Shown: in pieces, positions 29,152-54,390 of the stretch
Layout: each line of letters starts with the position of its first letter
Position numbering within the stretch: the first letter of the stretch is position 1
Origin: Saprospiraceae bacterium
GTDB taxonomy: Bacteria > Bacteroidota > Bacteroidia > Chitinophagales > Saprospiraceae
NCBI GenBank assembly: GCA_020629965.1
Contig: JAHDCG010000001.1
Location: 84,802 to 148,801, forward strand
Direction: 5' to 3'
Length of the DNA: 64,000 bases
The notes under the pieces: model-generated
Database searches by the model: none
What the model was told of the DNA's origin: nothing
The model's input: the letters and a program-made list of their open reading frames with translations, nothing else
Program-made: the position numbers and the translations under genes

Positions 29152-29228
29152 TCCGATGTTCCGGAGAGACGCGTTTTCCCGCGTCTTTACAAAAGCCTTC
29201 TACTGAATTTTATCGTATTTGTGCAGTA

Positions 29229-29370: not shown

Positions 29371-29536
29371 TTAAGTAGGTGACGGTATTTATTTCGGTAA
29401 ATTTAAGGACAAGATTTTTTCGTATATTTTCTTTAAAAAATCAGTGCATAGCCGTAGCTACGGACTTATTTTTTGGAGGAAATAGGCGGAAAAAGATGTT
29501 TTTAAATTACCGAAATAAATGTTGTCACCTACTTAA
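29371..29536. repeat. Long hairpin element, copy 1 (166 bp)
   Basis: The outer arms TTAAGTAGGTGAC and TTTATTTCGGTAA are repeated in inverted orientation at the other end. The complementarity continues imperfectly to a central palindrome CCGTAGCTACGG. On the minus strand the core reads CCGTAGCTACGGCTATGCA, shared with copy 2 at 44937-45104. No open reading frame. Confidence 0.85.
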
Positions 29537-37650: not shown

Positions 37651-37784
37651 CCCGGCATTATCATACCATGAGCGGCGAACCGGATTGGGAGATGCCATGC
37701 CGTTGGTATTAAAATGTGTAGCTCGGCACTTTCTCCCACCCGGCACTTACGTGCCGGGCTGAAGTGTTTCGTGCCGTTGGCACT
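37651..37784. repeat. REP-like repeat, two tandem copies
   Basis: Copy A (37651-37710) and the second half of copy B (37751-37784) each end in a GCCGTTGG motif. Copy B contains GCCGGGCTGAAGTGTTTCGT, which matches the reverse complement of 49187-49247 at 28 of 30 bases. Copy A matches that element over about 60 bases with roughly a dozen differences. GC-rich, hairpin-forming, no open frame. Confidence 0.85.
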
Positions 37785-39076: not shown

Positions 39077-39143
39077 GACAGGATTAACGGGATTATTAGG
39101 ATTTGCCGATTTGGCTTATCCTGAAAACCCCGTTAATCCTGTC
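39077..39143. repeat. Inverted nonamer array (GGATT)
   Basis: GACAGGATT, AACGGGATT, ATTAGGATT, TGCCGATTT is followed by the inverted series ending CCCGTTAATCCTGTC. The outer 15 bases pair perfectly. It sits between two convergent genes and may also stop transcription from both sides. Confidence 0.9.
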
Positions 39144-44936: not shown

Positions 44937-45104
44937 TTAAGTAAAAGAAACCAAATAACTTGAGCCGTTATGCTCATTCTTTTTCCTTCTAAAAAACACA
45001 AAAAATAGTTCCGTAGCTACGGCTATGCAACGATTTTTTGAATTCTTTAGAAGAAAAAATTAAAGAGCATTCAGGCTTAACTTATTTAATTTCTTTTACT
45101 AAAC
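44937..45104. repeat. Long hairpin element, copy 2 (168 bp)
   Basis: The arms share AGTAAAAGAAA, AAATAA, ATGCTC and CTTCTAAA blocks in inverted order around the core CCGTAGCTACGGCTATGCA. The arm sequences differ from copy 1 at 29371-29536, although core and total length are the same. Confidence 0.85.
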
Positions 45105-54187: not shown

Positions 54188-54222
54188 AAGTTTGGTTTGC
54201 TTTTGTTGTTTAGAATAGATTC

Positions 54223-54390
54223 GCGGATTTAGCGGATGAGGCGGATTTGTGCGGATTTTTTCTTTTCAATTTGTATTAAAACTCAAAAGAACGAAGACAA
54301 TTTTGATGTAAATAATCAATAACAAAGCAAATATTAAAAAACAAAAAAATCCGCCCCGATCCGCTAAATCCGCCTCATCCGCGTATCCGT
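54223..54390. repeat. Inverted nonamer array (GCGGAT)
   Basis: GCGGAT occurs at 54223, 54232, 54241 and 54251. The inverted ATCCGC series (last copy ATCCGT) starts at 54349, 54359, 54368, 54377 and 54385, a near-regular 8-10-base period. The spacer is about 90 bases and AT-rich. It lies between the M14 and amidohydrolase genes, which have the same orientation. Confidence 0.9.

What the first reader, a model, noticed from the sequence alone, without database searches (positions are those of the whole stretch)
29371..29536. Long hairpin family: common core, different self-complementary arms (copy 1)
Copy 1 (166 bp) and copy 2 at 44937-45104 (168 bp) share the core CCGTAGCTACGGCTATGCA with flanking A- and T-runs, but the arms differ: copy 1 uses TTAAGTAGGTGAC and TTTATTTCGGTAA, copy 2 uses AGTAAAAGAAA and AAATAA. 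Each arm still pairs with its partner. Preservation of pairing with changed sequence means that the structure is selected or the arms are re-copied as a palindrome. It could be a MITE-like element, a structured RNA or a DNA cruciform site.
Basis: partly seen in the sequence, partly recalled or inferred. Interest (0 to 1): 0.75.

Follow-up and report, generated by a model that had tools for sequence, protein, structure and literature searches.

The report
Mobile hairpins with one conserved tip
These are two members of an apparently undescribed superfamily of tiny (about 160 bp), gene-less jumping DNA elements that fold end to end into one long hairpin; the tip is nearly invariant across distant bacteria while the arms and insertion rules change, and the pattern of changes says that a single-stranded (probably RNA) form of one strand is what selection preserves.

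Summary
The 19-base core occurs 25 times exactly in this genome (control 0) and heads full-length ~160-bp hairpins of at least five arm types. The exact 18-mer recurs in over 100 contigs, mostly Bacteroidota, with scattered Gemmatimonadota and Proteobacteria; none found in viral, phage or plasmid collections. Arms differ almost completely between subfamilies yet pair: in 44 diverse copies 87.6% of pair cells stay paired (shuffled 62.9%) and 400 cells are changed on both sides (shuffled 137).

The elements are mobile. Copy 1 carries a 2-bp TA duplication, copy 2 a 3-bp TAA duplication. In another carrier, filled and empty paralogous sites show a TAA duplication. One body is thus inserted with at least two stagger lengths, which implies different transposases.

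New finding: arm mismatches are strand-biased. On the GCATAGCCGTAGCTACGG strand they are mostly G·U/T wobbles, not A·C (380 v 146), and that strand folds better in 71 of 75 elements. A single-stranded form, probably RNA, is selected, not a double-stranded cruciform.

Best reading: a MITE-like superfamily with a conserved structured body and exchangeable ends. The transposases and the job of the tip are not identified. A reverse-transcribed (SINE-like) origin is disfavoured.

The parts
29374..29533 (+). Copy 1: subfamily A hairpin element, 160 bp; folded (GCATAGCC) strand is +
   Evidence: model R1 110 bits on + versus 34 on - (R1 was built with a sister copy of subfamily A)
29372..29373 (.). 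TA target duplication, left of copy 1
   Evidence: 11 of 11 subfamily A copies are flanked by TA on both sides, 0 of 11 by a 3-bp duplication
29534..29535 (.). TA target duplication, right of copy 1
   Evidence: as above
29445..29463 (-). Conserved core CCGTAGCTACGGCTATGCA of copy 1 (hairpin tip)
44941..45099 (-). Copy 2: subfamily B hairpin element, 159 bp; folded (GCATAGCC) strand is -
   Evidence: model R1 104 bits on - versus 29 on + (R1 was built with a sister copy of subfamily B)
44938..44940 (.). TAA target duplication, left of copy 2
   Evidence: 4 of 4 subfamily B copies have a matching 3-bp TWA duplication
45100..45102 (.). TAA target duplication, right of copy 2
   Evidence: as above
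45011..45029 (+). Conserved core CCGTAGCTACGGCTATGCA of copy 2 (hairpin tip)

Best explanation
The two hairpins are non-autonomous, MITE-like transposable elements of one old superfamily. Shown: each is a ~160-bp DNA segment, self-complementary end to end, inserted between genes with a short target duplication (TA for copy 1, TAA for copy 2). The near-invariant tip (GCATAGCCNTAGCTACG on the folded strand), two internal loops and the total length are kept; elsewhere mainly pairing is kept. One strand is preferred for pairing. Inferred: mobility is by transposases supplied in trans. Because duplications of 2 and 3 bp (and perhaps 4-bp CTAG sites) occur on the same body, different subfamilies probably use different DDE transposases, plausibly of the IS4/IS5 groups. 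Arm sequences drift by compensatory change or hairpin-templated arm copying, which lets both ends change together and so adopt a new transposase. The common body is retained because its folded single-stranded form, most likely an RNA, helps the element persist or move.
For: 25 exact copies, 39 within one mismatch, in several near-identical bursts. Filled and empty paralogous sites in Membranihabitans: AACCAATC-TAA-[element]-TAA-TATAACAAG against AACCAATCTAATATAACAAG. Matching 3-bp duplications in 11 of 12 TACG, 9 of 11 TACC, 4 of 4 B and 3 of 3 D copies; 2-bp TA in 11 of 11 A and 8 of 10 TACTC copies, none of these with 3 bp. Covariation: 32 of 37 pairs with changes on both sides, score 0.626 against 0.201 shuffled and at most 0.240 slid. 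Strand bias: A.C 380 against G.T 146 on the core strand, 59 elements to 3; the complement is more stable in 71 of 75; 31 to 7 elements after de-redundancy below 65%. No gene recurs beside the elements and their orientation is random. Some IS ends look like element ends: an IS5-type IS with [CTAG]GGAACCTC in the genome that has elements [CTAG]GAACCTGACC, and IS4-type IS with [CTAG]TGTCC in Bacteroidota.
Against: No autonomous partner with matching ends was found, even in a complete Maribacter genome carrying three subfamilies. This genome has no DDE_Tnp_1 match, and Membranihabitans, with about 118 elements, has one. IS copies can be lost from short-read drafts and only one DDE transposase family was searched. 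In ordinary MITEs the ends are conserved and the body is free, the reverse of what is seen here. No expression data were available.
Confidence: 0.6

Rival explanations
1. Ordinary MITEs: only the ends matter, the body is a passenger, and pairing survives because palindromic arms correct each other by template switching.
For: Within young subfamilies complementary double changes greatly exceed independence, 73 against about 2.3, as arm copying would give. Short internal-deletion derivatives exist.
Against: Does not predict an invariant tip and internal loops across phyla, fixed ~160-nt length or the strand-specific wobble bias.
Confidence: 0.2
2. A single novel enzyme recognises the folded tip and body of a single-stranded intermediate and cuts at a fixed distance from the tip, so that end sequence hardly matters.
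For: Constant tip-to-end distance with unrelated ends; strand-specific folding; no IS with the same ends in a complete genome.
Against: Duplication length differs by subfamily (2 against 3 bp), which is normally a property of the enzyme. Some ends resemble those of IS elements. No shared candidate gene was found.
Confidence: 0.12
3. Bacterial SINE-like retroelement: the hairpin RNA is copied into DNA by a reverse transcriptase encoded elsewhere.
For: RNA-like strand bias, conserved tip, short target duplications.
Against: No RVT_1 match in this genome (99.4% complete), in Membranihabitans or in six other of 17 carrier genomes. Most copies are full length.
Confidence: 0.02
4. REP/RAYT-type or IS200/IS605-type (HUH) single-strand transposition driven by the hairpin.
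For: One Y1 transposase gene in this genome; HUH enzymes act on one folded DNA strand; the core contains GTAG.
Against: These enzymes do not make target duplications (general knowledge), which are shown here. The elements are ~160 bp, not 20-40 bp, and the core does not lie beside the Y1 gene in the stretch read.
Confidence: 0.03
5. A conserved cis-regulatory or terminator RNA, or a DNA cruciform/operator site, selected by the host at each location.
For: Stable hairpins located between genes.
Against: Random orientation relative to neighbouring genes (34/30/29/24), no shared neighbours, near-identical dispersed copies with target duplications.
Confidence: 0.03

Closest known systems
Prokaryotic MITEs in general (review PMC10969869)
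   Same: Small, non-coding, A+T-rich, inverted repeats, short target duplications, intergenic, transcripts that would fold into long stem-loops
   Different: Here the interior (tip, internal loops, length) is conserved across phyla and the ends vary, with at least two duplication lengths on one body
ERIC and Correia/NEMIS elements (review PMC2229807)
   Same: ~105-160 bp, long stem-loops, TA at the termini (as in copy 1); RNase III cleavage of NEMIS transcripts is a precedent for a role of the RNA
   Different: Those are described from particular lineages; here 3-bp TWA and AWT duplications also occur and the arms have turned over while the tip has not. No Rfam family matches
REP / GTAG-tagged palindromes with RAYT transposases (PMC3733652, PMC2817692)
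   Same: Dispersed chromosomal palindromes
   Different: 20-40 bp, tagged at one end; here 160 bp, conserved at the tip, with target duplications
Integron attC sites (from general knowledge)
   Same: One strand folds better than the other
   Different: attC sites keep the ends and vary the tip; here the reverse

Membership tests
Prokaryotic MITE | Short, non-coding, dispersed multi-copy element | tested here: met
   ~160 bp, 25 exact cores in the genome
Prokaryotic MITE | Terminal inverted repeats | tested here: met
   Whole element is an inverted repeat
Prokaryotic MITE | Target-site duplication, filled versus empty site | tested here: met
Prokaryotic MITE | Ends match those of an autonomous transposon that mobilises it | tested here: inconclusive
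   No full match in complete Maribacter or among fetched IS loci; partial likeness in OFTM73 and of CTAG-TG ends
ERIC / NEMIS | Sequence homology to those families | not tested
   Their sequences were not compared
REP/RAYT | 20-40 bp tagged palindrome, no target duplication | tested here: not met
   160 bp with 2- and 3-bp duplications
Retroelement (SINE-like) | Reverse transcriptase in the carrier genome | tested here: not met
   No RVT_1 match in this genome nor in 7 of 16 other carriers
Integron attC | Conserved ends, variable tip | tested here: not met
   Tip invariant, ends variable
Known Rfam RNA family | Match at gathering score | tested here: not met
   (only long-hairpin miRNA models, far below their gathering scores)

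The most novel reading that the evidence does not exclude
A transposable element defined by the fold of one strand rather than by its ends: a single-stranded RNA or DNA form, recognised through the invariant tip and internal loops, is required for mobility, and the ends are free to change so long as they pair, so that one structured body is carried between phyla by successive, different transposases.
Probability: 0.2. Interest if true: 0.9.

Novelty: new variant of a known kind. Interest (0 to 1): 0.62.

Why it matters
In known miniature elements the ends are conserved and the interior is arbitrary. Here the rule is inverted, with compensatory evolution and a strand bias that point to a functional single-stranded fold. 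If confirmed, it would show a structured RNA (or folded single-stranded DNA) as the conserved heart of a mobile element and a route by which non-autonomous elements change transposase. It gives a ready, covariation-rich family to test by RNA sequencing and pull-down.

Tried and rejected
Cassette insertion at the tip: some Membranihabitans copies keep only one arm beside the core, but full extraction showed the same outer ends with other hairpin repeats nested inside. Linked gene: no protein family recurs beside the elements. RAYT link: one Y1 gene, no core beside it in the stretch read. IS with identical ends: solo arms in Maribacter are decayed or truncated copies without transposase. Own-genome DDE_Tnp_1: none. 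Reverse transcriptase: absent in several carriers. cis-RNA: no orientation bias. Phage/plasmid carriage: none found. Literature search for the core: no paper. The strand bias could in part be a deamination bias (C to T and A to G on the folded strand); this would still need that strand to be single-stranded in a way tied to the element's own polarity.

Full report
Check of the observation. The core CCGTAGCTACGGCTATGCA occurs twice in the window, in opposite orientation, with none expected by chance. The element of copy 1 is 29374-29533 (160 bp) and that of copy 2 is 44941-45099 (159 bp). Whole-genome search gave 25 exact cores and none of the reversed control; 39 copies lie within one mismatch of the 18-base core. 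Nearly all of the 25 exact copies fold along their whole length. Subfamilies in this genome: A (AGTAGGTGAC..., copy 1), B (GTAAAAG..., copy 2), C (AGAGTTG...), D (GGGCTTCGG...) and E (AGACCTTG...). Copies within a subfamily are nearly identical, so amplification is recent.

Distribution. About 7.5 chance matches to an 18-mer would be expected in 257 Gb on both strands, so isolated hits need care, but multi-copy carriers are clear (52 in Membranihabitans marinus, 90 in a Saprospiraceae MAG, 12 in a deltaproteobacterial MAG, with up to one mismatch). In G+C-rich carriers the arms are G+C-rich and still pair. None was found in viral contigs (exact 18-mer), phages or plasmids (consensus query).

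Anatomy. Complete elements are about 160 bp whatever the arms. On the strand reading GCATAGCCGTAGCTACGG the consensus is ...ATTTTTT...CTTTAgaCAAGGCAAAATTTTcAAGCATAGCCGTAGCTACGGTTaAAATTTTAACGcAG...GGAAAAAGA.... The tip is invariant except for one loop base, seen as G, T or A; another common variant turns the G.T pair near the tip into A-T. Two internal loops, 12-17 and 32-35 nt from the tip, are often unpaired. RNAalifold gave 33 of 38 pairs with double changes. A direct count gave 87.6% paired cells against 62.9% shuffled and at most 52.1% when slid, 400 double-changed cells against 137.5, and covariation score 0.626 against 0.201. The alignment is by sequence (MAFFT); the structure came from the same alignment, so the slid control is favourable to it.

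Strand bias. Aligning each left arm to the reverse complement of the right arm with symmetric scores, mismatches on the core strand are A.C 380 times and G.T 146 times; 59 elements lean to A.C and 3 to G.T. On the complementary strand these are G.U wobbles. The bias is spread over the arms, and that strand has the lower RNA folding energy in 71 of 75 elements. It remains in the outer arms after removing related arms: 31 to 7 elements at below 65% identity, 22 to 7 at below 55%, and 14 to 7 (not significant) among the 24 left at below 50%. Within young subfamilies single changes give 51 A.C against 16 G.T. A double-stranded cruciform or a passive palindrome does not predict this. DNA folding parameters show the same preference, so RNA and single-stranded DNA are not separated by it.

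Mobility. In Membranihabitans a multicopy host repeat is found filled three times, AACCAATC-TAA-[TACG...CGTA]-TAA-TATAACAAG, and empty twice, AACCAATC-TAA-TATAACAAG. Duplications were scored by explicit end motifs: TACG ends 11 of 12 and TACC ends 9 of 11 with 3 bp (TAA or TTA), B 4 of 4, D 3 of 3, Maribacter GAGACTG 4 of 6, GAAC 4 of 5 and C 2 of 3 (mostly AAT/ATT); A 11 of 11 and TACTC 8 of 10 with TA only and none with 3 bp. Since TA is its own reverse complement, TA could in principle be part of the element ends in those two groups, but the lack of any 3-bp match sets them apart from the rest. The two copies in the window thus represent two insertion chemistries on one body. A further group has ends [CTAG]TG. 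Insertions are mostly intergenic and random in orientation.

Search for the enzyme. No protein family recurs beside the elements. In the complete Maribacter halichondriae genome none of three subfamilies has an IS with the same ends; leftover single arms are decayed elements. This genome has no DDE_Tnp_1 match and Membranihabitans one, of the IS5_1 group. In other carriers, IS4-type IS with ends [CTAG]TGTCCCATTAAA, [CTAG]TGACCGACT, [CTAG]TGATGCGTTAA and an IS5_4 with [CTAG]GGAACCTCTGC resemble ends of co-resident or related elements ([CTAG]TGTCCTGTCAACC, [CTAG]GAACCTGACC) over 5-8 bases. This is suggestive only. Reverse transcriptase genes are absent from this genome and from Membranihabitans.

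Interpretation. Shown: a mobile, multi-copy, self-complementary element with compensatory evolution, strand-specific folding, conserved tip and length, and at least two duplication lengths. Inferred: trans-mobilisation by several DDE transposases, change of ends helped by concerted evolution of the arms, and a selected role of the folded single strand. Not known: whether it is transcribed, what binds the tip, which transposases act. It fits the MITE kind on size, inverted repeats and duplications; the cognate-transposon feature is inconclusive. It is called a new variant because the body, not the ends, is what the superfamily shares.

Noticed in passing
window 37739-37784 (+); L293 1067-1111, 13800-13844, 14666-14710: Rfam Acido-Lenti-1 (RF01687) matches in the window and, in Membranihabitans, inside the repeat that serves as insertion target for the hairpin elements; this RNA family looks like part of a dispersed repeat in Bacteroidota.
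   Followed up: partly
L285-L293 (Membranihabitans marinus): About 118 elements share ends but many are 240-550 bp with nested hairpin modules that have conserved loops (for example ATTTA) and variable, paired stems, plus a GTAG-type REP (GTAGAG..CGCAATGCATTGCG..).
   Followed up: partly
window 54218-54387: Another 170-bp inverted repeat between genes (GCGGATTTAGCGGATGAGGCGGATTT arms), without the conserved tip; weak match of the hairpin model on both strands.
   Followed up: no
window 39077-39143: Hairpin GACAGGATTAACGGGATTATTAGGATTTGCC with its 84% complementary inverse, near ORF starts.
   Followed up: no
window 29163-29190: Short REP-like hairpin GGAGAGACGCGTTTTCCCGCGTCTTTAC between a tRNA gene and copy 1.
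   Followed up: no
L024/L025 (contig G000:C289): Two cores 259 bp apart in direct orientation at a contig end, apparently of different subfamilies.
   Followed up: no
L327, L328 (Maribacter halichondriae): GAGACTGTTTTGAAATAGTCTC: minimal internal-deletion derivatives of a hairpin element beside genes, perhaps turned into terminators.
   Followed up: no
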